56,290 nucleotides of DNA from Perkinsus marinus ATCC 50983. Its lineage: Eukaryota > Perkinsozoa > Perkinsida > Perkinsidae. The DNA lies in contig NW_003206281.1 in the NCBI RefSeq assembly GCF_000006405.1, forward strand, positions 127,916 through 184,205, given 5' to 3'. Below the pieces are notes generated by a model, which made no database searches, had not been told where the DNA came from, and saw nothing but the letters and a program-made list of their open reading frames with translations. Shown piece after piece: positions 8,340 to 43,962 of the stretch (positions are counted from its first letter, which is position 1; every line of letters starts with the position of its first letter). A program made the translations under genes and the position numbers.

Positions 8340-8854
8340 CCTTCGTCGAGCCATGAAAGCTGGATCAGGAGCGTGCATCAGAGGTAACGATGCTCGTTTA
8401 TCCGCTAAGCAAAGAGCTATCGACTGAAGCCGGTCCCTTGTACGTATTGAGGAGCGTTACTGGTGTTTACGGACCTCATGGTTCATACCTAAAAAAGAGC
8501 TGTATAGTCTATGGCGGTCAGTTCACCTATGTGGAGATGTTCTAAAGTATGTTGATAACGTCGGAATACCAATATCCTCTATCGACTCGGCAATTACTCT
8601 ATGGCGTTTGAAGCGTCCAAAGTTGGATGTCATCCAATGGATAATGATCTATGGCGCGTGAAGAAAAAATGCGTTAAGGATACAAGATAAGTCTGCTCGA
8701 AGTTATTCGGCGAAGGTTTAGGAGGTAAGGTGGTGCATATGAGGTCTGCCAACAATCTGGCAGATGCGGCTACCCGGATGAAGATCGATTCTACTACTGT
8801 GGTCTTGGCTGAAGTAGCACGTAAATGGGCGTTAAGGCCATCGTTCGTTATCTT
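8340..8854 (+). pseudogene. Older retroelement pol relic, RNase H part
   Basis: Plus-strand fragments read as the end of an LTR-element RNase H: DSAITLWRLKRPK near 8586, then GKVVHMRSANNLADAATR from about 8725, matching the HxRS-NLAD-TR ending of BEL-like RNase H. The frame continues to 8854, where RT-2 has inserted. It resumes after RT-2 at 14760 in the same frame. Stops and frame changes show it is dead. No start, LTR or gag for this element could be identified to the left. Confidence 0.65.
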
Positions 8855-9058
8855 TGTGCCGATGTATGCAACTCAATACGGCCTTGTTACAGATAGCAAG
8901 ACTTGATTATACACCAATAACTTATGAGTAACGAATGGGATGGTATAGCTTAGCTAATATCTTAGCTGATACAAACGGGGACAACGGAGACACAGATGTG
9001 CATACCGCAACAGTCTCAACTGACAACAGTTAACGTAATATGTTCCCATATCAGCACA
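8855..9058 (-). repeat. RT-2 LTR (3' LTR of the minus-strand element)
   Basis: On the plus strand it begins TGTGCCGATG and ends ATCAGCACA. I see no difference from 14552-14755. It interrupts the older pol frame at 8854. Confidence 0.96.
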
Positions 9059-9100
9059 CTCCCCCAAGTTGCCAGTAAATGGCAACTTGTATACTAACAG

Positions 9101-12100
9101 TCACTTTTTACGAGCAACTTTGTTAGACTTCAACATATCTGAGACTCTGTCGACTGCTCTCTTGCGGCTTCGTGTCATGACTCCAGCACCGTCATTCATA
9201 ACAGCCTCTTGCCATATCTTCAACTCTTCTCGGCTCACTGGAGGTTCGTCCTCATGCACTTCGGGCTCAACCTCAGCTTGCACACCCTTTTCCAGGAAGG
9301 TGGGAGAAGTAGGACCCTTATCAGTCTTAATAGGTCTTCGTCCTTTCTTCAACTGGTTTACAGGGCATTGCACGGTCACATCGTCATCTGCCTTCTTCAA
9401 ATTTATAGTTGCTCCATCACGGTCAACAACCTCATAGGGACCAGAAAATAAGGTACCATATTTTTCAGCAGTTGGGTTACGACGCCAGACAGTATCGCCA
9501 ATTGTTATAGAGTCTTGGTCAGTACGTCGGATCTTGGCCAGTCGTCTTCTAGTTTCGCCCTTCCGGCGGATCCACAATGACTTCAGCTTTGATAAAGTAC
9601 GGATATTGTCGTTGAGGTAAGCCTCCTTCAAGGAACCAAGTGGTTCAATTAAATCATCATACAGCAGTCCCGATCCTAGCCATTTCTTAATTTCAGCGAT
9701 AGCAGATTGGTCACGTGTCAACAGTGTGGCCGTCAGACCACCAGTTGGTCTCATGCATAGCCATGGACATAAGTCATTGTCAGCTTCATAGGGGATGTTG
9801 TTCACGACATAGGTAGCCTTGCTCACCAAACACTTCAGGTCCCTGACATCCTCAATAGATCGACCACGATCATTAGTCATACACCTTATAACTGATGAAA
9901 ACTCAGCATGTGGACGCTCAAGCCAACCTCGTCGTGCCGCATCGAACCCAAACGTGTATACATGGACAACATTGTGCTCGGCAAGGAGCTGCTTAAACCT
10001 TATAGACATAAAGCAGCTTCCTTGATCAGTTGCTATTACACGAGGCCACCCATTGGCATTCAGTAATTCTATAGTCGCACAGGCCACATCCTCAGTGCCT
10101 GGAGAGTCGATAACCGTAGCAGCTACAAACTTGCTAATGTAGCATACCAATAGAAGGACCCAATGTTTAACACCGTCAGCATCTTTGATGGGTCCTGCTA
10201 GATCAGCACCAATGACACCCCATAAGAGAGGCACCCATGATTTAGATGTTGATATAGCTTTAGTGAGGGTACGGCCATACTTGGCTTGACAACAGACGCT
10301 ACAGGAAGAAATCCAATGTTTTACTCTCCTATGAAGTCCCTTAAAGTCACAGACTCCACGTAACAAGCCGACCGTCTTGGTGATACCGGGGTGACCAAAA
10401 TCTCGATGAAACCTGTCAATCACCTCATCCTTCAGCTTGTCGTCATCCGGAATGTATACCACCCAAGTGTCGTCTTCATCTGAATTCCATCGTCTGCTCA
10501 TCAAAGTACCATTTTCATCATCAAGATGGAAGAACTTAGACTGAGAACAGGACGGGTCAGATCGTAGCTTGGACATAATAGATACACAATTAGGATCGGC
10601 GGATTGAGACACCTTAACACGTGGCAAGAACTGCTCTATCCAGGAAGCGGTTGTGTCTTGAGTAGCAACACAGCAAGACATCTCATTGATCACAAGGGCT
10701 TCTTCAATGTCATCCTCATCGGACAAATCCTCTTGCTTGTCGTCGGTACCCAAGGAACCATCGTTGAGGTTAAAGTCCACGAGGCAGTCATCTGTTAAGG
10801 CACTGCACACAGCTTCCCATGAACACTGGACTGGCTCACAATTCCCACAGGGCCGAGTAAGACGATCCGCTAGATTGTCACCGGAGCGAATGTGTCTGAA
10901 TTCAATCTCAGGCACTACCTCTTGGAGCTTGATCTTGTTCAACATGGCCCTTATGTGATTCAGCCTCCTCTTCTCCGGAGATGGAAGCTTCTCAATTTTG
11001 CTACTCTGTGGATGGCAAATCACCAAGCGTAACCGATATAGGGTGATGCTGCTATCATTGACGATGGTAACATGCTTCACTCTGGAAGTGAATGTAGATA
11101 GGATGGTTGAAACAGCTTGTACACCCATACGCAGAGACTCCAATTCACGTCGGGGGATGGAACCACCAGGGTGAGTTGATATTCTCGAGAGTAATCGTCG
11201 CCCATTAGCACGTGAACGGACATCGACAGCCATAGCGAACTCACTAGCATCGACAAACACCACCAGACCTTCTATAGGAATGTATCGAGGAGGCACCATC
11301 CTCGTGGAGCAAGTGAAGTACTTCTCACACTGTTGTAAACACTCTTGAGAACGGAGCAGATAATCACCGGTGATAGCATCATTTTTCACTAGTCCGTGAT
11401 GTACCTCACCAAAACCAGCATTGTGTAGTTGTCGTAGTAAGGCCTTTATCTCCAAACTGGCCTCCGCCACCAGACCCAAAGGGTCGAAAAGCCTCGCTGT
11501 AATGGATCGTAGGGACGACATTCGGACTTCCCTAGGCAGACGAAAGTTTGGTAGTTTAATGTCCACATTATCACAGTTGGGACCAATAAACCATCGATAG
11601 CCGAGCCACGAGGCCATTTGTAAACCATCCATACCAGTAACATCACTGACAGTAACATCTTGGCCAATAGAAGAACGTGCTGTTTCCAGATTATGGAAAC
11701 GTTTCCTCTCGTTGATGTCAAAGCCTCTTCGTTTAAGAGCTTGTACAACAGAGATGCGGGAAGCTTCAACCTCAGAGATAGAAGATGCTCCTATAAGCAC
11801 GTCATCGACATAATAACCAACACCATCCCGTATCTTTGCAGGCAGGGAGGAGAAAATTTTCTCCAAGCTGCTGCCCAATGCCCATGGTGACCAATTAGTT
11901 CCAAACGGTACTCGAGAAAACTTAACCAAATGACCAGCCACTACCAGTGCGAGGTAATCGGTGTCCTCGTCATCGACCTTTCCTCCGCGAACCAGGACTT
12001 GCCAGAACGCTTTAGAAAGATCGTCACATGATGCTCTCTCAAAGCTTCTCCACAACATAAGCGTGCCAAATAAGTCCATAGACGTACTGCCCGTGCCATC

Positions 12101-14476
12101 ACCAGTGGTAGTAGTATAAGTATTAAGTGGTCTGGCATCCAAACAGAGTCGGCATTTGGTGCTTGTCCGGTTGAGATTAAACACTGGAACCACAGCCGTA
12201 TAGAACTTAGCGAAGTCGTGCGGAGACTGATCAGGAGGTTTTTCAATAACAACGCCTGATTCCAATAGTTCATGTACAGCAATTAAATACGCCTCATATT
12301 TCACAGGTTCATCCTTCAAACGAGTCAACACCTTGCGATCTCTGGCCCACACGTCCTTGAAGTTATACCGTGGTCTCGCAGAGCTTTTCCATGGGATAGA
12401 AACAGACAAGCGATCTGCTGCAACTTCAGCGTGGTTGCACTGGATAGCGAGACTGTTATCCTGAAGCCATCGATCGGGTATACACGAATCATCATCAAAT
12501 ATGCCCATAGGACGGAATATTATACGGTCTGGGCAGTGAGACTCGGCCGATACCACCCAGGTGCATGGACCCAGAAGACTTTTCGGTACGATGACATCAT
12601 ATTTGCTATGTTCAATGACATAGCAATCACACTGTCGGACTTGATGACTAGCTAGGTGAATCTTAACACCAATCACCTTGTCAACAATCGCACACGACGT
12701 ACCATTTATCATAGTCAACATGCTTGAAGTAGCAGTAGTAGTGGTACTGAGCTCAGGGATACTCTCTTTCATACTGTTGAAAACCCTTCTTGTAATAAAG
12801 ACGTCGGTGGCACCAGAGTCCAGTAAAGCATAATATCGATGTTCATCACCTTCGAACCATACCGGTATCAGAGGCAAGCCATTGGAAGCCTTTTCCAAAA
12901 CTTGGACATCCGATGATCCTTCATTGCACTCTACCATTGATACCATACAGGCTGAGTGGTCCTGAAATGAGTCACTGACAGTGGCTGTTGGCACAGGTTG
13001 ATCACAGCTGCCATCATGAAACTCAGCAATAAGACAATCAGGGCTCTCACCTTCTTCTTCTTCACAAGATTGACTTCCTCCTTGAAAGAAAACTTCATCA
13101 TACGGCACCTGCACAGCGTTACCCTCCGTTGTAGGAGCAGCAGTAGTTGTAGGATTAATAGTAGCATCTTGGGATTCGAACTTGTCAAAACGAGCCCTTA
13201 TTCTTTTGCCACCAATATCAGCACCATTAGAAGCTTCAATGAATGCTTGCGCTGGTTTATGTTCATTGAACTTCACTGTGACAAAACCCCTACGGGGTAA
13301 AAGTCTCACATACACATCAGTATCATGCCCTAACAGTCGAGACACAAAATCTTTTACATCCTGATAATTCCAAGCTAGCGGAACACCAGAGAGGAAAACC
13401 CGTTTAGCATCTGGACTCGTGGAGAACTCGATGACATTAGCTTCCTTGTCAGTCTTCTTCTTGTCCTTCTTACTAGGAGTAGCACTCTTGACCTTAGCAG
13501 AGGACGCACCACGAGTCGTGGAAATAGTAGGATTACTTATCGCTGTAGTGGGAGTTCCGACCAACGAAGCACCATAACGAACTCGTAGCTGAGCCCACCT
13601 TCTAGTCTCAGAAATCATACTCTCCATAGTTGATACAGAAGTCATCGGCATCCTATCGAGATAGAGACGAGCTTCAGTTGGCAAACCTGAGTATAGCCGA
13701 GCTCGTAACTCACTGTCTGTAAGAGGACATTCGCGAACTTCACCGATCTGGTCTTTCATGGTCTGAATGGCGGCGATGTAAACTTCCAAAGTAGTAGGGC
13801 CATCACACTTCAGATTCTCCCATTTCCGGTGGAGCTCCATTTCGCTACCGAGATCACTATATAGTCGTAAAACTCGCCATGCAGTAACAACCCGTTGACT
13901 GAACAAAGTGTTCCCCTTCACATGGCATTGCTCATTAATCAGTTGTTGTAGAGGAGTAGATACATTATTGATGATATAGAAGTATTGGTAAGCACTTGAC
14001 AGCTCCCCCGTGCCAGAAAATTGGATCTCTGGCTGATTCATAATAGTCTTCTTGAAAATCATGTAACCCCTCTTATCAGTCACACCAGAGAATCGGCCTC
14101 CCTCTATAACACCAGCAGACTTAGCTTGTTTGCTAATCTTCATGATAACCAAAGGCTCTATCACCAACGACGATTTGGCACTTCGGTCAGATTTAGTGCT
14201 ATCGAGCTGTTGTTTGACCTCCTCAACAATACCATGCACTGTATTAGTAGGACCATCCTTGCTGTCATCGCCAGTAGCACCAGTAGTACCATTTGCATCA
14301 TGTCTGGTCTTGTGATCAGCGTTGGACTCAAGCTGTGACTTAATACCTGCAATCGACTCCGTCAACGAATCTAGCTCCTTCTTCAGCTGCCAAGCCCACA
14401 CAGGTGGGGATTGCTCAGTACTGCTCTTCTTATTGTCATCAGTCAGTACTGGGTCAGACGCCTTGGGAGATACCAT
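9101..14476 (-). CDS. gag-pol: RT-2 Gag-Pol polyprotein with an RRM-like domain in Gag
   Basis: 1791 aa from ATG at 14476. Gag fills the first ~500 residues and has no CCHC knuckle. At about 355-430 it has an RRM-like fold instead: KRVFLSGVPLAW (RNP2-like) and RRGFVTVKF (RNP1-like). The protease has DSGATDVF (about 552). RT has ASCDDLSKAF (motif A, about 816), VPFGTNWSPW (motif B) and YYVDDVL (motif C, about 889). RNase H has VFVDASEFA, PRRELESL, IVNDSS and NLADRLTR. Integrase has an HHCC zinc site (HRDFGHPG ... CSVC, about 1352-1395), catalytic acids in IGADLAGP, ATDQGSCF and GWLERPHAEF, and a FSGPYEVV C-terminal fold. All catalytic positions are present. Gag and Pol share one frame, so there is no sign of a frameshift or stop-readthrough control of the Gag:Pol ratio. 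Confidence 0.93.
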   Translation of the reverse strand: MVSPKASDPVLTDDNKKSSTEQSPPVWAWQLKKELDSLTESIAGIKSQLESNADHKTRHDANGTTGATGDDSKDGPTNTVHGIVEEVKQQLDSTKSDRSAKSSLVIEPLVIMKISKQAKSAGVIEGGRFSGVTDKRGYMIFKKTIMNQPEIQFSGTGELSSAYQYFYIINNVSTPLQQLINEQCHVKGNTLFSQRVVTAWRVLRLYSDLGSEMELHRKWENLKCDGPTTLEVYIAAIQTMKDQIGEVRECPLTDSELRARLYSGLPTEARLYLDRMPMTSVSTMESMISETRRWAQLRVRYGASLVGTPTTAISNPTISTTRGASSAKVKSATPSKKDKKKTDKEANVIEFSTSPDAKRVFLSGVPLAWNYQDVKDFVSRLLGHDTDVYVRLLPRRGFVTVKFNEHKPAQAFIEASNGADIGGKRIRARFDKFESQDATINPTTTAAPTTEGNAVQVPYDEVFFQGGSQSCEEEEGESPDCLIAEFHDGSCDQPVPTATVSDSFQDHSACMVSMVECNEGSSDVQVLEKASNGLPLIPVWFEGDEHRYYALLDSGATDVFITRRVFNSMKESIPELSTTTTATSSMLTMINGTSCAIVDKVIGVKIHLASHQVRQCDCYVIEHSKYDVIVPKSLLGPCTWVVSAESHCPDRIIFRPMGIFDDDSCIPDRWLQDNSLAIQCNHAEVAADRLSVSIPWKSSARPRYNFKDVWARDRKVLTRLKDEPVKYEAYLIAVHELLESGVVIEKPPDQSPHDFAKFYTAVVPVFNLNRTSTKCRLCLDARPLNTYTTTTGDGTGSTSMDLFGTLMLWRSFERASCDDLSKAFWQVLVRGGKVDDEDTDYLALVVAGHLVKFSRVPFGTNWSPWALGSSLEKIFSSLPAKIRDGVGYYVDDVLIGASSISEVEASRISVVQALKRRGFDINERKRFHNLETARSSIGQDVTVSDVTGMDGLQMASWLGYRWFIGPNCDNVDIKLPNFRLPREVRMSSLRSITARLFDPLGLVAEASLEIKALLRQLHNAGFGEVHHGLVKNDAITGDYLLRSQECLQQCEKYFTCSTRMVPPRYIPIEGLVVFVDASEFAMAVDVRSRANGRRLLSRISTHPGGSIPRRELESLRMGVQAVSTILSTFTSRVKHVTIVNDSSITLYRLRLVICHPQSSKIEKLPSPEKRRLNHIRAMLNKIKLQEVVPEIEFRHIRSGDNLADRLTRPCGNCEPVQCSWEAVCSALTDDCLVDFNLNDGSLGTDDKQEDLSDEDDIEEALVINEMSCCVATQDTTASWIEQFLPRVKVSQSADPNCVSIMSKLRSDPSCSQSKFFHLDDENGTLMSRRWNSDEDDTWVVYIPDDDKLKDEVIDRFHRDFGHPGITKTVGLLRGVCDFKGLHRRVKHWISSCSVCCQAKYGRTLTKAISTSKSWVPLLWGVIGADLAGPIKDADGVKHWVLLLVCYISKFVAATVIDSPGTEDVACATIELLNANGWPRVIATDQGSCFMSIRFKQLLAEHNVVHVYTFGFDAARRGWLERPHAEFSSVIRCMTNDRGRSIEDVRDLKCLVSKATYVVNNIPYEADNDLCPWLCMRPTGGLTATLLTRDQSAIAEIKKWLGSGLLYDDLIEPLGSLKEAYLNDNIRTLSKLKSLWIRRKGETRRRLAKIRRTDQDSITIGDTVWRRNPTAEKYGTLFSGPYEVVDRDGATINLKKADDDVTVQCPVNQLKKGRRPIKTDKGPTSPTFLEKGVQAEVEPEVHEDEPPVSREELKIWQEAVMNDGAGVMTRSRKRAVDRVSDMLKSNKVARKK

Positions 14477-14551
14477 AGAGCAATTGAACCGTTACTTGTT
14501 GAACAGAGTGGTCTTTACACAAGAGCTTGAGGTAGTTGCTTCTCGGATGAT

Positions 14552-14755
14552 TGTGCCGATGTATGCAACTCAATACGGCCTTGTTACAGATAGCAAGACT
14601 TGATTATACACCAATAACTTATGAGTAACGAATGGGATGGTATAGCTTAGCTAATATCTTAGCTGATACAAACGGGGACAACGGAGACACAGATGTGCAT
14701 ACCGCAACAGTCTCAACTGACAACAGTTAACGTAATATGTTCCCATATCAGCACA
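14552..14755 (-). repeat. RT-2 LTR (5' LTR of the minus-strand element)
   Basis: Identical by eye to 8855-9058. Transcription of RT-2 should start here and run leftward; the leader to the Gag ATG (14476) is 75 bp. Confidence 0.96.
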
Positions 14756-15998
14756 TCTTCGACCCAGCTGTATCGGCACTACCTTCTAAAAATGCATCGA
14801 TGATTCATCTGGCCTACAGTGTATGACCATTATCACCGACTTCACTAATGGTAGTGAGCCCTCTACACTACAGCCGGACATATCTGAGTCTGATCGGCAT
14901 GTTGATTGGGCAGAGCTTGCCCGAACAAACCAGAATTCATCGTTTTTCCTTACCGCTCTTCGAGAGCTTCTACTCCATGGGAAGGCGACCGATGGTTGTT
15001 CTATTCCGCGTCGAGTTCTCAACAATGCTTCCAAGTTCCATACGGTCGAGGATGGTATATCATATCGGTGTATAAGATCAACTTCAGAAGGTCAACCTCT
15101 ACACCAAGTGGTATTGGACCCCGAAGTCGATGATGAAGCGATGATTAGCCGTTTGATTTACCACAATTATTGTGGCACAATATTACTACTCATCTGGGGG
15201 ATGAAGCCCTACAATTGAAAGGTGAAGGTGCAAGAATGGCCATCACGGTTGTGTGAAAAGCAAACCAGTAGTCGTTCTGTTCTTTCATTTGAGTCTCTGA
15301 GAAAAGTGTCATGGTAGTATTATTATCATTACCATCTTGGCTCAAGAGCTTTTCCGTCCCTCTGGTATTTGCCATCAGTTCATACAATCTGGTACCTGCA
15401 ATCGTCCAAGACCGTAGGATTTCTACAGATGAAGTCCACTATAACTGGTCAAGTGCTAAGGTTGGATCATGTGGTGAACTTACCTACGGGTGACGGTAAT
15501 TTCCATCACGTGTTGAGCCTTGTCTGTGCAGCTACAGGCTTCACTTTGTTTCGAGCTACAAAAACTACCAGGTCTATCGAGACTACAAAAATCCTAGATA
15601 GCATCTTTAGTGATGCATCTTTCCCTATCTGTCTCGTGGTGGATGGCGAATTTAATTCGACTCATTTCCAAGAGTGGTGTACTACTTGCCACATAATGGT
15701 TGCGACCCTTCCTCCGCATCATCGGAGCTATGTTGGTGGGTTGGAACGTTGCCATCTACATCTGAGACAATATTTCGCTACTAAGCACGCGTCTGGTGAG
15801 GAGATGAAAGAATGGCCATCATGGTTAGGTGATCTGCAGTTGGTTCATAATCTTACAGTCTTTCCTGGTTTGGGCTTTGGTCCTGCTGATCTGTTCTATG
15901 GCCGTCGGTTGATGAGACCTGCGAAATTGGTTTATTACAAGCAGAAGAGGTTATTCCAAGCAGGGACTGCGAGAGCCATGCACAGCTTGTTATTCTAA
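14756..15998 (+). pseudogene. Older retroelement pol relic, integrase part
   Basis: This resumes the frame cut at 8854: across the empty TCTT site the reading is ...RPSFVIF then DPAVSALPSK without a shift. The integrase region follows. LHQVVLDPEVDDEAMI and IYHNYCG (about 15100-15175) stand where the zinc domain begins. A core in the frame of 15369-15998 has LRLDHVVNLP, LVVDGEFNS and VGGLERCHLHL as the D, D, E positions. Stops and frame changes lie between 14820 and 15370. The start at 15369 is a convenience; the true protein is the 3' half of a Pol. It probably belongs to the same family style as RT-1 and RT-2. Confidence 0.7.
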
Positions 15999-17553
15999 GC
16001 AGCGCGGTATGCTTGGGATTACAAGTAACTATTGTAACTTGCTTCGCCGGTGATATAAAATCTGTTACATACTGCGTCAACTTCATGTTTTCGTTGTCAA
16101 ATGGAGCACCAGGTATATCACTCAATCAACTCGGAGCTGAACAGTACCCGCATATATCATGAAACATTTTTTACATTCATTTCGCAACGGGATCTCTTAG
16201 GAATGGCAGTTGACATGAAACAGTATTGATATCCGTTATCACAGTATTGAGGGGTACACTAATACCCAGGTCACAAGCTGCAGACTTTGGGGTCCAATTC
16301 ATACATATCACCAGTGATCAGCCACGGGCCAGATTAAACCTGAGAGCTTCCTTGAGGTGTAAAGAATACTCATTCTACAGATGATTCCTCCTGTACTCCT
16401 TACTTTGCTCTTCGGACGAACAAGGACTTATGTTCCCTTCATTTTGCCAAGCGACGCTCGGAATAGATTCATTCCGGAATTGCATCGACGAGCAGCTTGC
16501 GCTCACCGAGGTTGCTTCATCACTGTTTGCTTCGTCGTCTGTCGGCATTGCGGTATCAAACCCTGTGTCACCTTCTTGCCAGTCACCATCGTCTATATCA
16601 TTTGGGAGGCCTGAGTCATCAACCTATGGTGTGTAAGCACTGCTACCAACGATCGTATTTTATACTGCGCCGAGCTCGTAACATCCCGATTCTCCTGACG
16701 AATTGCTATCTTGTAATAGAGATTCCCCATCGTTGACCGAGGCAGTTGCAGTTCTACCACTCCAGTGGGAACTACCTTCGAGGGATGCTATCGAGCGCAC
16801 TCGTCCTAAAAACAGAGCATTTTATGCCCCACATGGCCGGCAATCCCCTGCAAAAGTTCACCATGCCTGGCATGCATGACAAGATAGAAAAGTTTGAGAA
16901 ACAATCTTGTTGACATAATCACTGCTATCTTTCCCATAGGGAGTCCACATTCAATAGATATGTAATCATTAAGACATGATGTGCTCACGTCTCTCTCCAA
17001 TGCTAGATTCCGAGTCTCTGCCATCACTGTCGCCTGCATAAGTCTCCTGTCTTATCTGGTCCCGGTGAACAGAGACAGGAACTGCATGACGGTCATTAAC
17101 AATGCGAGTTGCGTTATCCTCATGTCACCTGCACGCGGCGCCGAAGCAGCGGAATGATACCGACCTAGAGCACCGACCCGTCGCCTTGTTGGGCGGCCTC
17201 TACGGACAGTGGGAAGTCCCCGATTCTCTGGATGATATCTGATGTGAACGGCAAGTGTTAGGCAGGCGTAAAGTCGCAAACTTACGGGTCCTGCGTGCCC
17301 CTGAGCACTTCCACTGCGTACCCATGAGAGCATGTCCCCCAGTCACGCCAGCTTTTACAGGTACACGACACTATTGCGGACTCACCGCTAAGTCGATGAT
17401 CACCAAGGGGAGCTTCGAGGGTGATCAGGTTGAAGCTGAAGTACGTTCGCATCAAGAATTCTAGTGTAGGGGCATCATCTGAAGAACAACATACATCACC
17501 TTCACGGGGATTAATGGGGTTAGTTCGGGGTTCAGCGTCTTTGTGTTAAACAC
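15999..17553. other. Region with no secure gene
   Basis: No convincing coding frame is seen. On the minus strand an ATG at about 17124 opens a 23-residue hydrophobic peptide (MRITQLALLMTVMQF...) that looks like a signal peptide but stops at once. A plus-strand frame around 16430-16636 is Ser-rich and unrecognised. The stretch probably contains the 5'-truncated body of the element whose LTR-like end starts at 17972. Confidence 0.4.
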
Positions 17554-17871
17554 ATGAGTATCGTTCCCGGAGACAAGGTGTTCGAGTGGTCTAACTTCAT
17601 CGATCGAGGAAGCCGTCAGAAGTACTTAGTCGTCAGTCTGGAGGACGACTGGTATGCGGACGGAGAAGATCCGCATCTATATCGTCTACGAGGAGAACGT
17701 GACGGAACGGAGGTGTTGGTTGATGGAGAAGAAGACCTCTGTCCATTAAGTGGAGAAAAACGGATACTTTGCGGACGAGCTGAATGCTGGATGAGCTTCA
17801 AGGACAGAGTGACAAATGAGGAATGCTTAAAGCACCTCCTGAAAGTGAATGGGAGTTGGGTAATTGTTTAG
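17554..17871 (+). CDS. Possible Pol C-terminal fragment
   Basis: A 105-aa frame with ATG start. The opening, VPGDKVFEWSNFIDRG followed by a Tyr/Leu-rich strand pattern (YLVVSLEDDW, HLYRLRG), resembles the small beta-barrel after an integrase core. It ends 100 bp before a G-rich tract and an LTR-like TG start at 17972. That spacing suits the end of pol in a retroelement. The protein itself is not recognised, and it could be an unrelated short gene. Confidence 0.35.
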   Translation: MSIVPGDKVFEWSNFIDRGSRQKYLVVSLEDDWYADGEDPHLYRLRGERDGTEVLVDGEEDLCPLSGEKRILCGRAECWMSFKDRVTNEECLKHLLKVNGSWVIV

Positions 17872-17971
17872 CTCTTACTTAACTGTCTCCCACGTTCTCG
17901 AGTCCATGTGACGTTTGTTGCGCTGTTACCAGATAGGTCGTTTCGGGACGCAACGACTAGTAATGGGGGAA

Positions 17972-18300
17972 TGTGACGGTCAGCTAGTCTCATACCTTAT
18001 TATGCATCGTTGTTATCCTGGTAACAGACCTATACTGGAATTGCTCTCTTAACGATAGTAAATTGCTAGGGTTAGGTACCATACCTGTGGGTAATGTGGA
18101 TAACCACCTGTATGGGATGCACTTAAGGTGTGTCTGGCGCCGTTAGCCACTGATGAGTCCCTGTGGTGGGGACGAAACACTACCTTTGGAGAGGAGTAGA
18201 TTTGAGGTAACAGACCTGAATGTCCAACCGATCTCCCTAGATCGGCAGGGCTTACAGGGCTTGCTTGATTTAACAATGACTGCTTGGATTAGCCCTGCCA
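17972..18300 (+). repeat. LTR-like sequence carrying a hammerhead ribozyme
   Basis: The left edge is TGTGACGG directly after a polypurine tract, TAATGGGGGAA (17961-17971). The proposed right edge is ...AGCCCTGCCA at 18300, after which an integrase-like frame starts at 18301. Inside are the hammerhead (18125-18186), a 12-bp direct repeat GGTAACAGACCT flanking it (18020-18031 and 18206-18217), a 7-bp-arm hairpin (18228-18245) and a 9-bp stem pairing 18244-18252 with 18291-18299. No second LTR copy is in the window, so the right edge is a proposal. Confidence 0.55.
18125..18186 (+). ncRNA. HHR: Type III hammerhead ribozyme
   Basis: Every core element is present. Stem III is AAGGT-GTGT (18125-18133) paired with ACAC, one bulged T, and ACCTT (18177-18186). 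The cleavage triplet GTC ends at 18134. Stem I is TGGC/GCCA (18135-18138 and 18146-18149) with a 7-nt loop. CTGATGA (18150-18156) is followed by stem II GTCCC/GGGAC (18157-18161 and 18169-18173) with loop TGTGGTG, and then GAAA (18174-18177). Self-cleavage is predicted after C18134. Stems I and II are closed and stem III is open, which defines type III. Loops I and II could make the usual tertiary contact. Confidence 0.93.
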
Positions 18301-18837
18301 CGCATGAGACCTTGGCGTACTACATCATCCTCAACTGAGACAAATAAAGACGTGTTGCAAGGTGTTCGTCAATTATTCTGTCCTGAAGAAGAGTCCTTTC
18401 TTGAAGACTTATAAAGATGCCGATGTGAGGAAACTCGTTTACGCTTCGAGAAGTATAAGAGATTTTGGGAGGATGTGAAGGAAGTACAACAAACATGGTT
18501 GAGTCGAAGAGTGAACAATCATTCTCTGAGGTCTCCTGAGTTTCCTGTCGGTAGGAAATGTCTCGTCTATTGTCCGGAGGCGAATCAGTCTAAGCATTCT
18601 CTGAAGTTCGCTGGTCCTTTCGAGATCGAAGAGGTGGTTTCTGATTCACTCCGTAAGATTAAGTCCTCTGGTCAAGGTGAACATGGTAGCAAGAATATAT
18701 CGCCGTTACAAAGTGTTCACAACCTCTCCCCCTACTACACTCGTGATGATGACGAGGTCAATGTTGGGTACAGTGTGATCTGTGTCAGAGGTGGATTCCT
18801 GTTACACCGTCTCTTTAAGGTAGATTTTCTGCTGTAA
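18301..18837 (+). pseudogene. Integrase C-terminal relic
   Basis: From 18301 the frame reads RMRPWRTTSS, then DVLQGVRQLFCPEEESFLED, then a stop at about 18411. The frame of 18475-18837 continues with TWLSRRVNNHSLRSPEFPVG and LKFAGPFEIEEVV, a GPF/GPY-type integrase C-terminal domain, and ends at TAA 18837. It may be the tail of the older pol at 14756-15998, split by the hammerhead-bearing element. However, both pieces contain an MRP-like stretch, so they could come from two elements. Confidence 0.6.
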
Positions 18838-18941
18838 CTACTCGTTTCAGCTGTCGTCTAGCTGGTCTTACTTGTCGTGTGGCAATGTCGCCAAACGGCG
18901 AGCGCAGAAGTGATGAGCACGCAAGTGCATAGCGAAGTTTG

Positions 18942-19541
18942 CTAAGGAAAAAGCAAGACTGTCTTGCCATCCTTAAGCTTCTTCATCGCCGGGTCACGAG
19001 GCCTCTTCCATTTCACATGTCCTTGATAGATGATCAGTCGGGCCAATTCTTTTCTTGTTTCGCGACTGGGTTTCTTTTCTTTTGCGTCACCGCCAGCATG
19101 GGTTTGCAGACTTCTCGCAGTCTTGTCCGCGAACTCGGCTGTGAGACCAATAACGACATTGTCCTGCGGGTCATTGATATCAAAGAGGTCAACAATGGCT
19201 GTCACTTGCTTCTCTTTATCAGCTGTATTGCGTTTGCCGTGGAAGCAGTAGTACCTGTTTTCCGGGCGCTCATCCGGTGTACAACCCGGCGGATATGAGG
19301 AGCTACCATCAGCCGAAACTGCTGCTAGCTGAGGACCTTCATGGTATGAGGCAATACGCTCCTCATCTTGCTTGATGAACTCGACCTCCAGCTCCTTCAG
19401 TAGGTTGATGAGCTCCGGTGTTAACTCTAGGTTCTGGATGCTACCGAAAAGGGGCTTCTCATCACCAGTTGAACGGCCGACCACGATGCCTTCAGCAAGC
19501 GAGATGAAGGCTATCGTAGCTACAGAGATCCTGACGAACAT
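18942..19541 (-). CDS. Secreted-protein family member 1, short and divergent
   Basis: 199 aa from the ATG at 19541, chosen because MFVRISVATIAFISLAEG is the signal peptide shared by all four copies in the window. The next ~140 residues follow the family: LTPELINLLKE, AAVSADGSSSYPPGC, YYCFHGKRNT, DPQDNVVIG and HAGGDA. After HAGGDA the similarity fades and the protein ends about 100 residues early with a Lys-rich tail, where copies 2-4 have a beta-rich second half. It is outside the duplicated A/B/C units, so it is an older relative. Function is unknown; a secreted or surface role is inferred from the signal peptide. Confidence 0.7.
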   Translation of the reverse strand: MFVRISVATIAFISLAEGIVVGRSTGDEKPLFGSIQNLELTPELINLLKELEVEFIKQDEERIASYHEGPQLAAVSADGSSSYPPGCTPDERPENRYYCFHGKRNTADKEKQVTAIVDLFDINDPQDNVVIGLTAEFADKTARSLQTHAGGDAKEKKPSRETRKELARLIIYQGHVKWKRPRDPAMKKLKDGKTVLLFP

Positions 19542-19654
19542 TCGTGGAGGAGTGGATGAAGCTGAGGTAAACATGTTCAGTATGATGCTGATACTACCTC
19601 TACTATTCGATTCAAATCTCATAACGGGAGTTCGGTTTTGAGATGTTCATGATT

Positions 19655-23346: not shown

Positions 23347-24231
23347 TTACTGTGGCAGGACGATCTTGTCATTAATGAATGTCACCGGGATGTTGAGCTT
23401 GATGAGTGGAATATTGACGAAGGCCATCCCTGTACCCTTAAGGATCCATACGCTGTCATTGTTCTTGTAAGTGTCCAAGGTCAAATGGAGGGAAGCACCA
23501 GCGGTACCAAGCTTAATCTTATTGGTAGTCCCTGTTGACACGTTGAAGCCCATAGTCCCAGGCTTTGTGGCGTAGACGTAGCTAGCTTGATTGCCGGTAT
23601 GTTCCACGTTAATAACTTGGTAACCGAGAACATAGATTTTAAAACGAGGATCAACCTTGACCTTGGTCTGTAGACGACCGAGTAGACCGGGCTTGGAGGA
23701 GGCTTGCATATCGTAGGTCGCCAAGGATATGGCCGCGCCAAGCTTGTTTCTGTTACCAAAAGCTACCACCTCTGCTTCACCGCCAGCGTGGAGGTCCAGA
23801 TATGTCGCTCTCTTCGCATCGAAAGTGGCCGTCATGCCCAAAGCGACATTGTCCTGTGGGTCTTTAAGATCAAAGACATCAACAATGGCTGTCACCTCCT
23901 TCCCTTTACGAGTTGTATTGCGCTTGCCATGGAAGCAGAAGTACTTGCCTTCCGGGCGAATGTCCGGTGAACAACCCGGGGGATATGAAAAGCTACCGTC
24001 AGCCGAAACTGCTGCTAGCAGGGAGGTTGCAGAGGATGAGGCAATAAACTCTTCATTTTGCTTGATAAGATCGGCCTCGTACTCCTTCAGTAGGTTGATG
24101 GCCTCTGGCGTGAGCTCCAAGTCGTCGAAGCTACCCATAAGAGGCTTCTCATCACCACTTGGACGGTCGACCACGATGCCTTCAGCAAGTGAGGTGAGGG
24201 CTATCGTAGCTACAGAAATCCTGACGAACAT
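23347..24231 (-). CDS. Secreted-protein family member 2
   Basis: 294 aa from the ATG at 24231. The open frame runs further upstream, but the four copies agree only from MFVRIS, which starts a signal peptide (hydrophobic core VATIALTSLAEG). Domain layout: signal peptide; acidic helix ELTPEAINLLKEYEADLIKQ; SYPPGCSP...YFCFHGKRNT with two conserved cysteines; DPQDNVALGMTA; then a beta-rich second half with TMGFNVSTGT, ASLHLTLDTYKNNDSVW and a NDKIVLPQ end. Several N-x-S/T sites. No transmembrane segment or known enzyme motif. Likely a secreted, lineage-specific protein; function unknown. It lies in duplication unit A. Confidence 0.85.
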   Translation of the reverse strand: MFVRISVATIALTSLAEGIVVDRPSGDEKPLMGSFDDLELTPEAINLLKEYEADLIKQNEEFIASSSATSLLAAVSADGSFSYPPGCSPDIRPEGKYFCFHGKRNTTRKGKEVTAIVDVFDLKDPQDNVALGMTATFDAKRATYLDLHAGGEAEVVAFGNRNKLGAAISLATYDMQASSKPGLLGRLQTKVKVDPRFKIYVLGYQVINVEHTGNQASYVYATKPGTMGFNVSTGTTNKIKLGTAGASLHLTLDTYKNNDSVWILKGTGMAFVNIPLIKLNIPVTFINDKIVLPQ

Positions 24232-24328
24232 TTGTGAGGGACTGGATGAGTCTAAGCTAAATAACTTCACTCTCTGCTGTTCGATTCTAATATCATTACC
24301 TGAGTTCAGTTCTGAGATGCCCACGATT

Positions 24329-24336
24329 TCACGTGA
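24329..24336. promoter_or_regulatory. Palindrome TCACGTGA upstream of family member 2
   Basis: Same conserved block (GATTTCACGTGATGACG) about 100 bp upstream of the ATG at 24231, followed upstream by the shared TTTCACGCGAGAT and CACTTGAAACTATG strings. Confidence 0.5.
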
Positions 24337-25351
24337 TGACGGGGACGCAGAACGTGCGATGAGATGTCTCAGGGTTAGTTTCACGCGAGATAAAAAGTCG
24401 ACTCGATCACTTGAAACTATGTTGTAGTCCTGTGAGTGACATAACAATGCCAAGTAGTGAAATATTTAGTAGTGGATCTGAATCCATGCCCTGGAATGGT
24501 GAGCTTTAGATCTTTGTGTTAATCTGGTATGTTTGGTAGTCACACGCAGCATGTGACACCGTTGCGTATGTGACACCAATATCTGGACTTGCGTGAGAAT
24601 AGTGTGACGCTGTCGCATGTGTCTGGAACGTCCTTGTCATGAACGTGCGAATCACACCGCGTGATGCACACGGCGTGTGACACACGCGTGATCAGCGTGT
24701 GTTTTGTCATGTGCAGGTGCTTTAACATTGTCTGAGCACAGCATGCATGTAATGTGAAAGCCCTGTGGACCAAAGCCGGACTATTCCAATCCAGCCTTCG
24801 TGCGCAGGGCCAGTTCGGCTAGACTGGTTTGGGTTCCTGGCTCCTATGGTTTTGAATAAGCAGTACCTGCCGCTACTACTGACTCTCAATATCCTGAAGG
24901 CTTCGATGTGCTTTATAATGTGGGTTTTTCTACAATGAAGGGTGAATATGCGAGGAGAACTATAGAGAATACGTATTAAAGCAAAATATACTATTCGTTC
25001 GAACCTCCTGCCATCCCCATCGGACAGGTTAGGAATTCTCAAAGGAAACACAGGAGGGGGAAACCAGAATATCCTCCGAATCGAAAGCGGTTCAAATTTC
25101 AAACTTCGAAATATTCCCGGTTCCGGGTAGACTGAGTCTATTAGACTCCGATGAATAAACAAGTACGAAGTGAGCGAAATGCTATCAAAGTTCGAGTGAC
25201 CCCTAGACAACGTACCAAGAGGGGCATCTCGACCCTAAGGCGACCGTGACACCAGTAGCGACGGTCACTAAGCGACCAGAGCGTGCGAAACGTGAAGACA
25301 AATGTATTGAATGAGGTTCCCCGCTCAGAGGATCAAAGAACTACAGCATTT

Positions 25352-27846: not shown

Positions 27847-30521
27847 CTAATTAAATTTTCTCGAATCAAGCTGCCAGCGCACCACACCACGGCGAAGGAA
27901 CCCGTTGGTATCCGGCCTGTAAAAGAAGTAGCGTGCGATCCTCGTACAGGCGGCCTGTAACAGGTCGCTTCAGGCACATACTGTGTGCCTTACAGTAACT
28001 CACATGCTTCTCGGTATTTTGTCAAAGAGCGCAGCAGCTGCCGAGGTGCTCGCCGGCACAGTGCAGAGGATGGACATGAACGTGGCGAGCGTGCTCACAT
28101 CTCGATGCAGGAGGCAGAACTCGTCAGGGTCCATGCTCCGTAGGACCTCCACGTCTATGTTGGCGTAATCACCTACGACAGAAGTTTGGAAAGCAAAAGA
28201 ACCTACTGTAGGTTACCTACAGATAGCATACGAATGAAAATAACGAGTCTCTATTAGGGAGAGTAATACATGGAATCCGGGTCGTGGAGAGCATTCAAGA
28301 ACTCAATTTGAACGTGGATTACTACCCTCACGGAAGAAGAATTGAACAGCGTCTTTCCCCGTTTGCTTCAAATTCCTGATGGCTTCCAAGGAACAGTCCT
28401 TAGCTTCCTTAGAGAAGATGTTCAAACTCTCTCTCTGCCACTTTGGATCAGTCTGGAATGAGCGCGGGTCGAATCTCGATATCCACAGAAGATCAGCTGC
28501 CGCATAAGATAACCTGAGGTTGTCAAGTCATCCCGGGGCTCCACTAAGTTACTTCAGCATACGAACAATCACCTATTCGAGATAGTAGTCTTAGTTTCCT
28601 GGTTCATGTTGCGCGTGCCGCCTATCTCATTCACAGCTTTGTTGATCTCAATCACTGCTTCGAAGATGGACAGGTCATTTTCATCAACTTTATTGCGAAG
28701 ATCGATCAAGGAAGATAGGACCGATGCCAAGGCTGTAGCCTCACAGCGCTTCGTGCCACTATGGAGAACCTCCAGGAGACTTGTATGGGCTTGCCTCGCC
28801 TCCGCGTCCAACCTGAGGAAGACGTAGGTCCAATGATGAGAGACCTATGAGACACAGGGCCGGTGTGGTATTTCATCAGCTGCTGTTCGAAAATGTACTC
28901 TCACTTCTCCCAGCAATCCTCTTTAGTATTCGCGGCGAAAGCGTCCTGTATGTCAGTCCAGGAACGTACAAGTTGCATGATGAGTTTCGCTTGTACCAGC
29001 GAGGTGTCACAACCCGCAGGATCCATCAGATGACCTTTATCACAAGCTGTCAAGTACCCTCGGAGGCTCTGGCAGAGATCGGTCCAGAAGCTCAGGTCGC
29101 CGTCGTCGTGGGCAGTCAGCTTCTGGAATAGGGTTTGCAACCCCTTGGAGAAGCAGTCCACCTCAATATGCAACCTTGGCTTCCCCTCGTCCGAGTAACG
29201 ACTATCCAGACGGTTCAGCAGCTCTTCTCTTATGCCGCGCAACAGAGGAAGATCCTTGCACACTACAGCTGTAATATGAATGTCAGCTGAAGAAAAACAC
29301 CTGTTCAGGAATGATAGATTTAAGTCTAATGAGGCTACACTCTATTCCTCTCGAGAATCTCTAATCGATCAATATATGCCAACATCGAAGCAAGCGATAC
29401 AATTACCCAGGTTTGAGGCCTACCTTCTTGGAGCTCCATCACGCAGACGGCCTCAGTAAATCCAGCTATCTCTTCGATAACTACCTCCTCATCACTCGCC
29501 ACCTTGACCGCCTTGTTTGAGGCGAAGCCTCGCAGAGGTACAGTATAGAAGGAGTAACCTTTGCTCCCAGAGGATTGATAGGTGCTCGCACATACGGTGA
29601 CCACGATGTCACTATTAAGCTCGTGATAATCCAAGATGAGGGACACCTTGCCGTTCAGACTTGACGCCTTCTTCAGTTTTGCCACATCCATACGCACGCC
29701 TTCTTCCTCGACGGTAAGCTCTAGACTCCTCAGGTGATCTATGGACCACTCGTATGCTATGCCAGGGAGGTGAGCATCCAGGGCATGATTGAACCAGGAT
29801 GAGTTGTTGGACAGGACTTGGCAGTCGATACCACACGCGACGAAGAAGCTCACTATGCGTTTCTCGAATGCTGACTTAGCAGCCTTCTCACTCTGCAGAA
29901 CTGGCACGAAGAGATTCTTAAATGAGGAACGAAGATCGTTCGACGACACAGCAGAGGGCGCCTGAGCGGCCCGGCCTCTCTTCTTCGCGGACTGCGTCCT
30001 AGAAGACGATCTCTTTTTTTGACAGATTGCGTCCTAAATGGCGAGCTTGTCCTCTTAGCAGAGCGTGTGTTAAATGGCGAGCTTGTCCTCTTCGCAGAGC
30101 GCGTCTCAGATGGCGAGCTTGTCCTCTTCGCAGAGCGCGTCTTAGATGGCGAGCTTGTCTTCTTCGCAGAGCGCGTCTTAGAGGGAGGGGTCTCGAAGCG
30201 AGAGGATGAGCTCCTCCTTGCAGGAGTTACGCTCTTCTTGGGACCGCCAGCTAATTTGGTACAGCGCTTCCTCTTAACCATAGGAGAACGTTTTCTTGTA
30301 GCCGTCGGAGGATAGCGGGCTAGTGCCTTGCTTCGCCAGGGCTCCGGGAGCTCGGGACCATGGTGCTTCATCAAGTGGGTGCGTAGCTTTGTAGGGTTTC
30401 GGTCCACATAAGGATAGTTACAGAATGTGCAGACCCATCTCTTGTCGTCTCCAAGTCCAACAGGTTTGACAAACTTATCAGGGTCGATCTCGCCTGGAGG
30501 CGGTCGTCTGCCAGGAGGCAT
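27847..30521 (-). CDS. hAT-derived gene: BED finger, SP/K repeats, DUF659-like and hAT C-terminal regions, six exons
   Basis: Exons (minus): 30521-29424, 29268-28905, 28812-28573, 28513-28326, 28172-28004, 27916-27847. All five introns are GT-AG (155, 92, 59, 153 and 87 nt) and keep phase. The N-terminus has a BED finger, RWVCTFCNYPYVD...HLMKHHG. A basic region with five ~12-residue repeats like KTRSAKRTSSPS follows. A hAT body comes next (FFVACGIDCQVLSN), then SYAAADLLWISRFDP and a hAT dimerisation-like end, LATFMSILCTVPASTSAAAA. I cannot find the hAT TDNA motif or a clear DDE set, so a domesticated DNA-binding protein is likelier than an active transposase. A run of seven A's (30014-30020 as T's) shifts the frame between the repeats and the body: a sequencing indel or a real lesion. 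No TIRs or 8-bp duplication were found around it. Confidence 0.7.
30040..30185. repeat. 36-bp tandem repeat inside the hAT-derived gene
   Basis: About four to five copies of a 36-bp unit (GCAGAGCGCGTCTTAGATGG ...) encode the KTRSAKRTSSPS peptide repeat on the minus strand. Basic SP-containing repeats of this kind occur in DNA-binding tails. Confidence 0.85.
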
Positions 30522-36824: not shown

Positions 36825-37706
36825 TCACTTCGGCAGGACGATTCTGTCCTGAAGGAAGGTCGCCGGAAAGTTTAGCTTGAGGAGAAAATTATTGGCGAAG
36901 GCCTTCGCTGTACCCTTAAGGTCCCATACGCTGTCATTGCCCTTGAGTGTATCCAAGGTCAAATGGAGGGAACCACCAACAGTACCGAGTTTAACGTCCT
37001 GGGTGATCGATGCTGTCACGTTGAAGCCCATATTCCCCCCATTTGTGGCGTAGACGTAGCTAGTTCTACTGGGCACATGCTCAATGTCCATAGCTTGGTA
37101 GTTCAGAACATATACTTTAAAGTGAGGATCAGCAACCATGTTTTGTTCCAGGCGACCGAGTAGCCCAGGCTTGGGAGATTCCAGATCATAGGTCGCCAAG
37201 GATATAGTCGCGCCAAGTCTGGTTTTGCGACCAAAAGCTACTATATTTGCGTCACCGCCAGCGTGGGCTCGCAGAGTTCTCGCAGTGTTGTCCTCGAACT
37301 TGGCTGTGAAACCAATAACGACATTGTCCTGTGGGTCTTTAATATCAAAGACATCAACAATGGCTGTCACTTCCTTCCCTGTACCAGTTGTATTGCGCTT
37401 GCCATGGAAGCAGTAGTACTTGCCTTCCGGGCGCATCTTCGGTGTACAACCCGGGGGATATGAAAAGCTACCGTCAGCCGAAACTGCTGCTAGCTGGGGG
37501 ACTCCAGAGTATGAGGCAATACGCTCCTCATCTTGCTTGATAAGATCGGCCTCGTACTCCTTCAGTAGGTTGATGGCCTCTGGCGTGAGCTCCATGTCGT
37601 CGAAGCTACCGAAAAGAGGCTTCTCATCACCACTTGGACGGTCGACCACGATGCCTTCAGCAAGTGAGGTGAGGGCTATCGTAGCTATAGAAATCCTGAC
37701 GAACAT
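36825..37706 (-). CDS. Secreted-protein family member 3
   Basis: 293 aa from the ATG at 37706 (MFVRISIATIALTSLAEG, signal peptide). An upstream GTG-led extension is conserved in sequence but has no ATG, so it is read as 5' UTR. The family blocks are all present: ELTPEAINLLKEYEADLIKQ, AAVSADGSFSYPPGCTP, YYCFHGKRNTTG, DPQDNVVIGFTAKF, then the variable half from HAGGDA to RIVLPK. Compared with member 4, the first ~155 residues are almost the same, but the second half differs at roughly a third of positions. Lies in unit B; function unknown. Confidence 0.88.
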   Translation of the reverse strand: MFVRISIATIALTSLAEGIVVDRPSGDEKPLFGSFDDMELTPEAINLLKEYEADLIKQDEERIASYSGVPQLAAVSADGSFSYPPGCTPKMRPEGKYYCFHGKRNTTGTGKEVTAIVDVFDIKDPQDNVVIGFTAKFEDNTARTLRAHAGGDANIVAFGRKTRLGATISLATYDLESPKPGLLGRLEQNMVADPHFKVYVLNYQAMDIEHVPSRTSYVYATNGGNMGFNVTASITQDVKLGTVGGSLHLTLDTLKGNDSVWDLKGTAKAFANNFLLKLNFPATFLQDRIVLPK

Positions 37707-37796
37707 TTGTGAGGGACTGGATGAGTCTAAGCTAAACAACTTCACTCTCTCTGCTATTCGATTCTAATATCATAACTTGAGTTTGGTTCTGAGATG

Positions 37797-39626: not shown

Positions 39627-40214
39627 GCCCCACCCAAAATTTCATATCTGAGATTGACTTCTCAGCGGAGCGGAGCACAACACGACCCGTAATTTCCAGG
39701 GGCCGTATGCGGATCCTGATGCAGCAGGTGAGTCAGAGTATTTACTCAGATGAAAAAATCAGATGGTGAGTAATAACCCCTGATTCACTGATTTTTTTCC
39801 TCTGGAGCGAGAAATCAGGATCATCGCGAGGATATGTGGATCCCTGAGCTGATTCGAGAATCTAAAGTTGATTTTTTGGCTGATTAATACTCTTACTCAA
39901 TATGCCCCGCTCATGATTTTTCGGGTTATTCCATTGAATCGGAGTATTTTCCAGAATCAGGGAATCAGAGTTTGAATCAGACATTTTTGACAAGAAGAAG
40001 ATTATAGTCGCTACGCCCCAGAACCGAAAGTTACAATTTCAAGAAAGGAAGAAAACGTCACCCTACGTGGGTAGAACCTGGCAGATTCGCCCCGAAGGCA
40101 TGTACATCTCCCGTTACGCTACAACAATGATAGATTCTTAGAAGAAGATCTTTTGTCGCACTTGCACACATCCGTACTTCAAACTTTTCAATATGTTCAC
40201 TCGGAATCAACTAA

Positions 40215-40423: not shown

Positions 40424-40432
40424 TCATCTCAA

Positions 40433-43884: not shown

Positions 43885-43962
43885 GTCTACTCACCGACTG
43901 CACTATAGTTGCGTTGGACATTGAAGGAGTGGTTTTTCTTTTTGGTTGATTTCGATCATTGA

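What the first reader, a model, noticed from the sequence alone, without database searches (positions are those of the whole stretch)
17961..18300. Type III hammerhead ribozyme inside an LTR-like sequence of a protist retroelement
The hammerhead core is complete and all three stems pair, including a 9-bp stem III. It sits about 150 bp inside a sequence that starts TG right after a polypurine tract. Plant retrozymes are known to carry type III hammerheads in their LTRs; a coding LTR element in an alveolate with one would be a new context. Self-cleavage within the LTR could yield defined RNA ends or circular RNAs.
Basis: partly seen in the sequence, partly recalled or inferred. Interest (0 to 1): 0.92.

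Follow-up and report, generated by a model that had tools for sequence, protein, structure and literature searches.

The report
Hammerhead ribozyme in protist LTR-like repeat
An oyster parasite carries a sequence with all the marks of a self-cutting RNA (a type III hammerhead ribozyme) inside what looks like the long terminal repeat of a retroelement, and the first bases of that repeat could pair with the ribozyme and switch it off, which would be a new setting for such ribozymes if confirmed.

Summary
The hammerhead is real: 18125-18186 +, cleavage predicted after C18134, Rfam Hammerhead_3 36.8 bits (gathering score 48.5), E=2.3e-4 for the window; 0 complete motifs in 22.5 Mb of shuffled strand. 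Contig lengths point to Perkinsus marinus. Six loci hold the ribozyme or a piece; four have an intact core.

The LTR reading is plausible, not proven. For: a 276-bp TG...CA module, recurrent ends at unrelated loci, and a hairpin-GGGGGA-TGTG junction like that of the BEL/Pao LTR in this window. Against: no copy with two LTRs was found. In the window the module is not a resident LTR: it lies in a fragment inside a DNA-transposon-like insertion, 15921-18304, with an 8-bp target duplication and empty sites.

New: module and ribozyme (17972-18186) are 98% identical to a copy whose adjacent ORF is near-saturated at synonymous sites, and the module's first 37 nt can form 27 pairs with the ribozyme's 5' strand. 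I propose a self-locking LTR hammerhead. Cleavage and locking are untested.

The parts
18125..18186 (+). type III hammerhead ribozyme, cleavage predicted after C18134
   Evidence: Rfam RF00008 36.8 bits, E=2.3e-4; intact core in 4 genome loci; 0 in 22.5 Mb shuffled strand
17972..18247 (+). 276-bp LTR-like module, TG...CA
   Evidence: 276 nt from TG to CA in C304, C99 and C118; right end near 18247 at four independent junctions, left end at 17966-17970 at three others
17974..18008 (+). proposed lock strand, pairs with 18116-18145
   Evidence: 27 pairs; duplex -35.2 against -18.6 +/- 3.4 for shuffles, 1 of 1000 as low; no covariation
18116..18145 (+). strand with two alternative partners: stem III/stem I of the ribozyme or the lock
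18228..18247 (+). terminal hairpin ending in CGGCA at the module's 3' end
   Evidence: present with some changed letters in C304, C99, C1, C118 and C255, not in C327
17965..17971 (+). polypurine tract GGGGGAA
   Evidence: sequence; same place and form as the BEL/Pao tract
17920..17959 (+). conserved hairpin block before the polypurine tract
   Evidence: 37-39 of 40 bases kept in eight related loci that lack the ribozyme; the eight share a common right flank, so they are not independent
17524..17868 (+). small ORF (115 aa; Met at 17554)
   Evidence: 13 matches at 11 loci; dN/dS 0.09 against C99 with pS 0.70; no Pfam family beyond a chance-level match at E=0.21
17507..18247 (+). 5'-truncated fragment of the ribozyme-bearing element
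   Evidence: C146 follows the surrounding insertion from 16295 to 17506, C99 is homologous from 17512 to 18248
15921..18304 (.). DNA-transposon-like insertion that carries the fragment
   Evidence: 8-bp duplication TGAGACCT, three uninterrupted paralogues, left end shared by four other copies; weak SWIM finger on the minus strand, E=0.054
15913..15920 (.). target duplication, left
18305..18312 (.). target duplication, right

Best explanation
The module 17972-18247 is the LTR (seen here without its partner) of a low-copy, integrase-type retroelement of Perkinsus marinus, and it carries a full type III hammerhead with both loops. The window copy is a 5'-truncated fragment of that element inside a DNA-transposon-like insertion. 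Proposed action: RNA that begins inside the module, downstream of the lock, folds the hammerhead and cuts after C18134, giving a fixed 5' end at U18135. RNA that contains the first 37 nt of the module, as the 3' LTR copy of a genomic RNA must, pairs them with the ribozyme's 5' strand and stays uncut, keeping its 3' end. Shown: the motif, the module's recurrent boundaries, its conservation, the complementarity. Inferred: LTR identity, cleavage, locking, start site.
For: Motif. Boundaries: similarity stops at or within a few bases of CA 18247 in C304, C99 (= C1), C118 and C255; left end at 17966, 17967 and 17970 in C327, C343 and C25/C26, the last beginning AATG, as unintegrated retroviral cDNA ends do (recalled); 276 nt from TG to CA in three copies. 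Architecture: hairpin, GGGGGA(A/G), TGTG as at the BEL/Pao LTR in this window, which has two identical 205-bp LTRs. Integrase C-terminal-like tail upstream of the small ORF in C99 (Integrase_p58_C E=0.0019, below cut-off). Constraint: 211 of 215 identical over 17972-18186 against C99, beside an ORF with 39 of 57 synonymous sites changed and dN/dS 0.09. Lock: the start of the module pairs with the ribozyme's 5' strand better than any other of 912 non-overlapping 45-mers of the window from 15001 on, and 1 of 1000 shuffles is as low; folding the whole hammerhead costs 8.5-10.9 kcal/mol if RNA starts at the module's first base and 0-3.6 if it starts at base 29 or later, in all three complete copies; 17972-18147 folds with z=-3.90, 0 of 200 shuffles as low.
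Against: No copy with two LTRs, no gag and no primer-binding site seen; poly(A) signal and start site were not determined. Truncated copies with one fixed 3' end are also what target-primed retrotransposition gives, and C255 and C99/C1 share five more bases past the CA. C343 and C327 start with three and four extra G of the polypurine tract. Lock pairs show no compensatory change and C327 breaks 3 of 27; hammerhead covariation is one pair, no better than shuffled (250 of 500). C99 and C118 each have a mismatch in stem II, C118 one in stem III, and C327 a 5-nt insert in the core. For C304 the model still disfavours stem III after the lock is removed, and stems I and II are poorly formed in C99 and C118. 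A second module stretch, 18017-18062, also pairs better than most shuffles (16 of 1000 as low). The whole 276-nt module is less remarkable (C304 z=-2.11, 6 of 200; C118 z=-1.46, 17 of 200). The conservation contrast rests on one pair of copies and could be recombination.
Confidence: 0.5

Rival explanations
1. The module is the 3' end of a non-LTR (target-primed) retroelement or short retroposon: reverse transcription starts at the terminal hairpin, so copies share a 3' end and vary at the 5' end. The hammerhead trims or circularises that RNA, as in retrozymes without LTRs.
For: Fixed right end and variable left ends in C304, C99, C118 and C255; duplication of 26 bp with one mismatch round the C343 fragment; terminal hairpin.
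Against: Fragments with the opposite pattern (fixed left end, variable right end) in C343, C25/C26 and C327; polypurine tract and TG...CA as in an LTR of this genome; no long poly(A) or simple repeat at the right ends, only two to four A in some; integrase-like tail upstream.
Confidence: 0.25
2. A relic: the hammerhead is a decayed passenger that no longer acts, conserved only because fragments spread recently or by recombination.
For: Every copy seen is a fragment; C118 and C327 have defects beside or in the core; the window copy is cargo of another insertion.
Against: 98% identity over 17972-18186 beside near-saturated synonymous sites, with lower identity on both sides; the hairpin block is kept in eight further loci, two of which were measured for coding divergence (pS 0.62 and 0.58).
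Confidence: 0.2
3. The hammerhead works but the lock is a coincidence; cleavage is constitutive, as in plant retrozymes, and may give circular RNA.
For: No covariation in the lock; free-energy models ignore the loop-loop contact of natural hammerheads (general knowledge).
Against: 1 of 1000 shuffles as low and best of 912 segments; gap of 8.5-10.9 kcal/mol in three copies; no copy with two hammerheads that could release a circle.
Confidence: 0.35

Closest known systems
Plant retrozymes (Cervera et al. 2016, PMC4918200; abstract and passages seen)
   Same: type III hammerhead inside an LTR of about 300-400 bp that follows a polypurine tract
   Different: retrozymes are non-coding, have two LTRs and 4-bp duplications; here an ORF under purifying selection and an integrase-like tail adjoin, no second LTR is seen, the host is an alveolate, and a lock strand is predicted
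NbRZ1 retrozyme LTR (PMC12029980; passages seen)
   Same: an LTR transcript whose 5'-proximal part is cut off by its hammerhead
   Different: there a point mutation was used to stop cleavage; here a strand of the same repeat is predicted to do so
Penelope-like elements and Terminons (PMC7761336, PMC6431247; passages seen)
   Same: hammerheads in terminal repeats or 3' ends of retroelements that encode proteins
   Different: theirs are minimal type I motifs lacking helix III or the loop contacts; this is a type III with both loops
Avsunviroid hammerheads (PMC11722881; passages seen)
   Same: hammerhead strands paired with other strands in a rod
   Different: there hammerhead sequences face each other (of the two polarities, recalled); here the partner is the start of the repeat
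BEL/Pao element at 8854-14755 of this window
   Same: hairpin, GGGGGA, TGTG at the 3' LTR start; LTR ends CGGCACA
   Different: no hammerhead, two identical LTRs; no convincing relation of its protein to the C99 tail (best E=0.21)

Membership tests
Hammerhead ribozyme, type III | CUGAUGA and GAAA core, NUH cleavage site, three stems, open end at stem III | tested here: met
   score below Rfam's gathering score
Hammerhead ribozyme, type III | self-cleavage | not testable with these tools
   no wet work
Hammerhead ribozyme, type III | covariation of stems across copies | tested here: inconclusive
   4 distinct copies, one pair changed on both sides, 250 of 500 shuffles as good
LTR retrotransposon | two direct LTRs flanking a coding region | tested here: not met
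   none among 11 matches at 9 loci; the assembly held may be partial and some stretches read N, so absence is not decisive
LTR retrotransposon | TG...CA ends, polypurine tract before the 3' LTR | tested here: met
LTR retrotransposon | primer-binding site after the 5' LTR | not tested
   no 5' LTR with its internal region was found
LTR retrotransposon | integrase and reverse transcriptase | tested here: inconclusive
   integrase C-terminal-like stretch in an 80-aa tail of C99, E=0.0019, under cut-off; of 11 matches to the tail only C99 itself covers all 66 residues
Plant retrozyme | two LTRs with hammerheads, non-coding centre, 4-bp duplication | tested here: not met
   one module per locus, coding flank
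Penelope-like element | minimal type I hammerhead in tandem pseudo-LTRs | tested here: not met
   type III with 9-bp stem III; RF00163 0 matches at E<=1 in the assembly, 1 of 14 control genomes rang
MULE-type DNA transposon (carrier 15921-18304) | 8-11-bp target duplication (recalled) | tested here: met
   TGAGACCT and empty sites
MULE-type DNA transposon (carrier 15921-18304) | MULE transposase and terminal inverted repeats | tested here: inconclusive
   SWIM finger only, E=0.054 and 0.086, below cut-off; imperfect terminal similarity

The most novel reading that the evidence does not exclude
An LTR retroelement of an alveolate carries a self-locking hammerhead: the start of U3 pairs with the ribozyme's 5' strand, so the 3' LTR copy in genomic RNA stays intact while a 5' copy that starts downstream of the lock cuts itself and fixes the RNA's 5' end. 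This would answer how a coding LTR element can keep a self-cutting ribozyme in its repeats without destroying its own genome.
Probability: 0.2. Interest if true: 0.85.

Novelty: new variant of a known kind. Interest (0 to 1): 0.6.

Why it matters
In the papers seen, type III hammerheads in LTRs belong to non-coding plant retrozymes, while coding retroelements with hammerheads are Penelope-like with minimal type I motifs. The held library has no paper naming both hammerhead ribozymes and Perkinsus (0 papers) and, by their titles, only unrelated ones for dinoflagellates (4 papers); most subscription papers are not held. A type III hammerhead in an LTR of a protein-coding element of an alveolate would bear on where retrozymes come from, and a built-in lock would be a testable answer to how such an element protects its genomic RNA.

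Tried and rejected
Rfam at gathering scores: nothing. Hammerhead_1 in the assembly: 0 matches. Protein search with the small ORF: 2 candidates, none at E<=0.001. Pfam on the small ORF: only DUF359 at E=0.21. Pattern scans: hairpin block in viral contigs 0, ribozyme core in genome contigs 0. Hammerhead model over the window and 33 of the 77 loci held: only the six known places. Duplicated ends round the C291, C342 and C305 copies of the carrier within the stretches held: none. Relation of the C99 tail or the small ORF to eight or nine proteins of the window: none convincing. An empty site for the C99 insertion: C164 and C23 share its left flank but then differ, so no clean empty site. My first descriptor scan missed the real motif because of the bulge in stem III (complete = 0) and was corrected. 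The dN/dS script stopped with an error after five pairs; only the printed pairs are used. Considered and rejected: that the hammerhead region is native to the surrounding insertion (the junction at 17506/17507 and the homology to C99 speak against it); that 17972 starts a resident LTR of a complete element in this window.

Full report
What was checked. The motif is there as described. 18125-18186 can be drawn as a type III hammerhead with a 9-bp stem III (one bulged U), a 4-bp stem I, a 5-bp stem II, loops of 7 nt each, a complete core and a GUC cleavage site. Rfam's Hammerhead_3 matches at 36.8 bits, E=2.3e-4 for the whole window over all families and 5.3e-5 for the 54.5-Mb assembly with that family alone. 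It is below the gathering score of 48.5, so Rfam's default search reports nothing, and at the loose threshold the family also rang in 3 of 14 control genomes, none over the cut-off. A descriptor of core plus three stems gave 1 match in the window and 0 in 200 dinucleotide shuffles, 22.5 Mb of strand.

Host. A DUF6740 protein of the window finds 13 proteins: 8 named Perkinsus marinus, 4 P. olseni, 1 P. chesapeaki. Two of the P. marinus ones lie on contigs of 347,146 and 249,143 bases, the exact lengths of contigs C304 and C25 of this assembly. The best match is only 87% identical, so the window's own protein was not itself listed. The assembly held is 54.5 Mb in 347 contigs; I recall the published one as larger, so absence here is weak evidence.

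Copies. The 285-bp module region has 11 matches at 9 loci. Four keep the core pattern exactly: C304 (window), C99, C1, C118 (the reversed control pattern gave 0). C327 has a 5-nt insert in the core and C255 only the 3' half. C343, C25 and C26 are left-hand fragments without the ribozyme. C99 and C1 share both flanks and count as one event; C25 and C26 likewise.

Ends. Right-hand similarity stops at CA 18247 or within a few bases of it in C304, C99/C1, C118 and C255; C255 and C99/C1 share five more bases (AAATA or GAATA), so this end is not perfectly sharp. Left-hand similarity starts at 17966, 17967 and 17970 in C327, C343 and C25/C26, that is, with four, three and no extra G before AATG. C343 is flanked by a duplication of 26 bp with one mismatch, and C25/C26 hold a fold-back. 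In C304, C99 and C118 the module is 276 nt from TG to CA. The BEL/Pao element of this window has two identical 205-bp LTRs; its 3' LTR is reached through a hairpin, then TTGGGGGAG, then TGTG, and ends ATCGGCACA. The module is reached through a hairpin, then AATGGGGGAA, then TGTG, and ends GATCGGCA. This is the best argument for an LTR. The best argument against is that no locus holds two modules.

What lies upstream. A small ORF (17524-17868) has 13 matches at 11 loci. Between window and C99, 39 of 57 synonymous but 36 of 219 non-synonymous sites differ, dN/dS 0.09 with synonymous change near saturation. In C99 an 80-aa tail upstream contains a stretch like an integrase C-terminus (Integrase_p58_C E=0.0019, under cut-off). 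Its last 66 residues have 11 matches in the assembly, of which only C99 itself is complete. Eight related loci carry the small ORF or part of it and the hairpin block but no hammerhead; they share their right flank and are copies of one arrangement.

Where the window copy sits. The repeat family at 14800-15920 and 18305-18946 is uninterrupted in three paralogues (C103, C346, C137; C103 has one changed base in the site). In the window it is split by 15921-18304 with an 8-bp duplication, TGAGACCT. The left end of that insertion recurs in C291, C342, C305 and C103. C146 follows it from 16295 to 17506 and then differs, and C99 homology begins at 17512. So the ribozyme fragment (about 17507-18247) is cargo in a DNA-transposon-like insertion, possibly MULE-like (SWIM finger, E=0.054, under cut-off).

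Constraint. Against C99, 17972-18124 is 150 of 153 identical and the ribozyme 61 of 62, while 18187-18247 is 46 of 61 and the ORF 270 of 339 with 14 gap columns. Against C118 the figures are 144 of 153, 58 of 62 and 47 of 57 with 9 gap columns. The hairpin block is likewise kept in the eight loci without the ribozyme. Either the module and its ribozyme are strongly constrained, or that stretch was exchanged recently; one pair of copies cannot decide.

The lock. Folding the whole module of C304 gives a probability of 0.00 for stem III, because 17974-18008 pairs with 18116-18145 in 27 pairs, covering the 5' strand of stem III, the cleavage site, the 5' strand of stem I and loop I. The duplex energy is -35.2 against -18.6 +/- 3.4 for shuffles (1 of 1000 as low), and of 912 non-overlapping window 45-mers only this same segment, shifted by one base, is as low; a second stretch, 18017-18062, reaches -25.0 (16 of 1000), the other two stretches nothing unusual. 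The energy cost of folding the whole hammerhead is 8.5-10.9 kcal/mol for RNA from the module's first base, 1.6-4.3 from base 13 and 0-3.6 from base 29 on, in the three complete copies. For RNA ending just after the ribozyme, the probability of stem III rises from 0.00 to 0.95 (C99) and 0.87 (C118) when the first 40 nt are absent; for RNA to the module's end it goes from 0.23 to 0.53 and from 0.01 to 0.93. In C304 it stays at 0.00-0.02, because other pairings compete, and stems I and II are poorly formed in C99 and C118 under this model. The helix shows no compensatory change: 27, 27, 26 and 24 of 27 pairs are kept in C304, C99, C118 and C327, and shuffles do as well. So the complementarity is beyond chance in this window, but its function is a hypothesis.

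Most likely working. If the module is an LTR, genomic RNA carries its start (U3) only at the 3' end. A ribozyme in R or U5 would then be free at the 5' end and, if in R, locked at the 3' end. In Nicotiana retrozyme NbRZ1 the LTR transcript loses its 5'-proximal part by the hammerhead (PMC12029980, passages), which shows that the first half of this scheme occurs in nature. Whether this Perkinsus RNA is transcribed, cut or circular is untested.

Compared with what is known. Type III hammerheads in LTRs are the mark of plant retrozymes, which are non-coding with two LTRs (PMC4918200, abstract and passages). Coding elements with hammerheads are Penelope-like, with minimal type I motifs (PMC7761336, passages). 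A review mentions type I hammerheads in satellite DNA of protists (PMC6155905, passages). This case matches none of these on all features, hence 'new variant of a known kind'.

Noticed in passing
window 8854-14755 (-): BEL/Pao retroelement with a 1791-aa ORF (Pao peptidase, RT and integrase zinc-binding over cut-off; protease and integrase core just below), two identical 205-bp LTRs and AAGA on both sides; looks young.
   Followed up: partly
window 40207-45944 (+): DIRS/PAT-like element with split direct repeats (40207-40394 with 45578-45765; 45434-45585 with 45793-45944), an RT-like ORF (751 aa) and a tyrosine-recombinase-like ORF (444 aa, Phage_integrase E=0.001, below cut-off).
   Followed up: partly
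window 18942-19622, 23347-24453, 36825-37745, 51338-52264 (-) and 33355-34995 (+): Five relatives of the DUF6740 family in one window; the plus-strand one matches over its whole length, the four minus-strand ones in part (2 of 4 over the cut-off), with repeated surroundings.
   Followed up: partly
L022 (C343) near 1500-1620; L024, L025 (C26, C25): 120-bp left-end fragment of the module with a duplication of 26 bp (one mismatch), and a fold-back fragment (forward 17970-18036, then inverted 18102-18026): possible traces of cDNA ends inserted without integrase.
   Followed up: partly
L043-L050 and L074 (C23): The 3' flank of the small ORF is joined to an antisense piece of about 72 nt of the integrase-like tail in nine loci: a fold-back-like chimera that was itself copied.
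   Followed up: partly
window 30023-30202: 36-bp tandem repeat inside an ORF region.
   Followed up: no
window 18020-18031 and 18206-18217: GGTAACAGACCT occurs twice in the module, once on each side of the ribozyme; TAACAGACCT of the second copy is kept in all six aligned copies while its flanks vary, and it could also pair with the ribozyme's 5' strand.
   Followed up: partly
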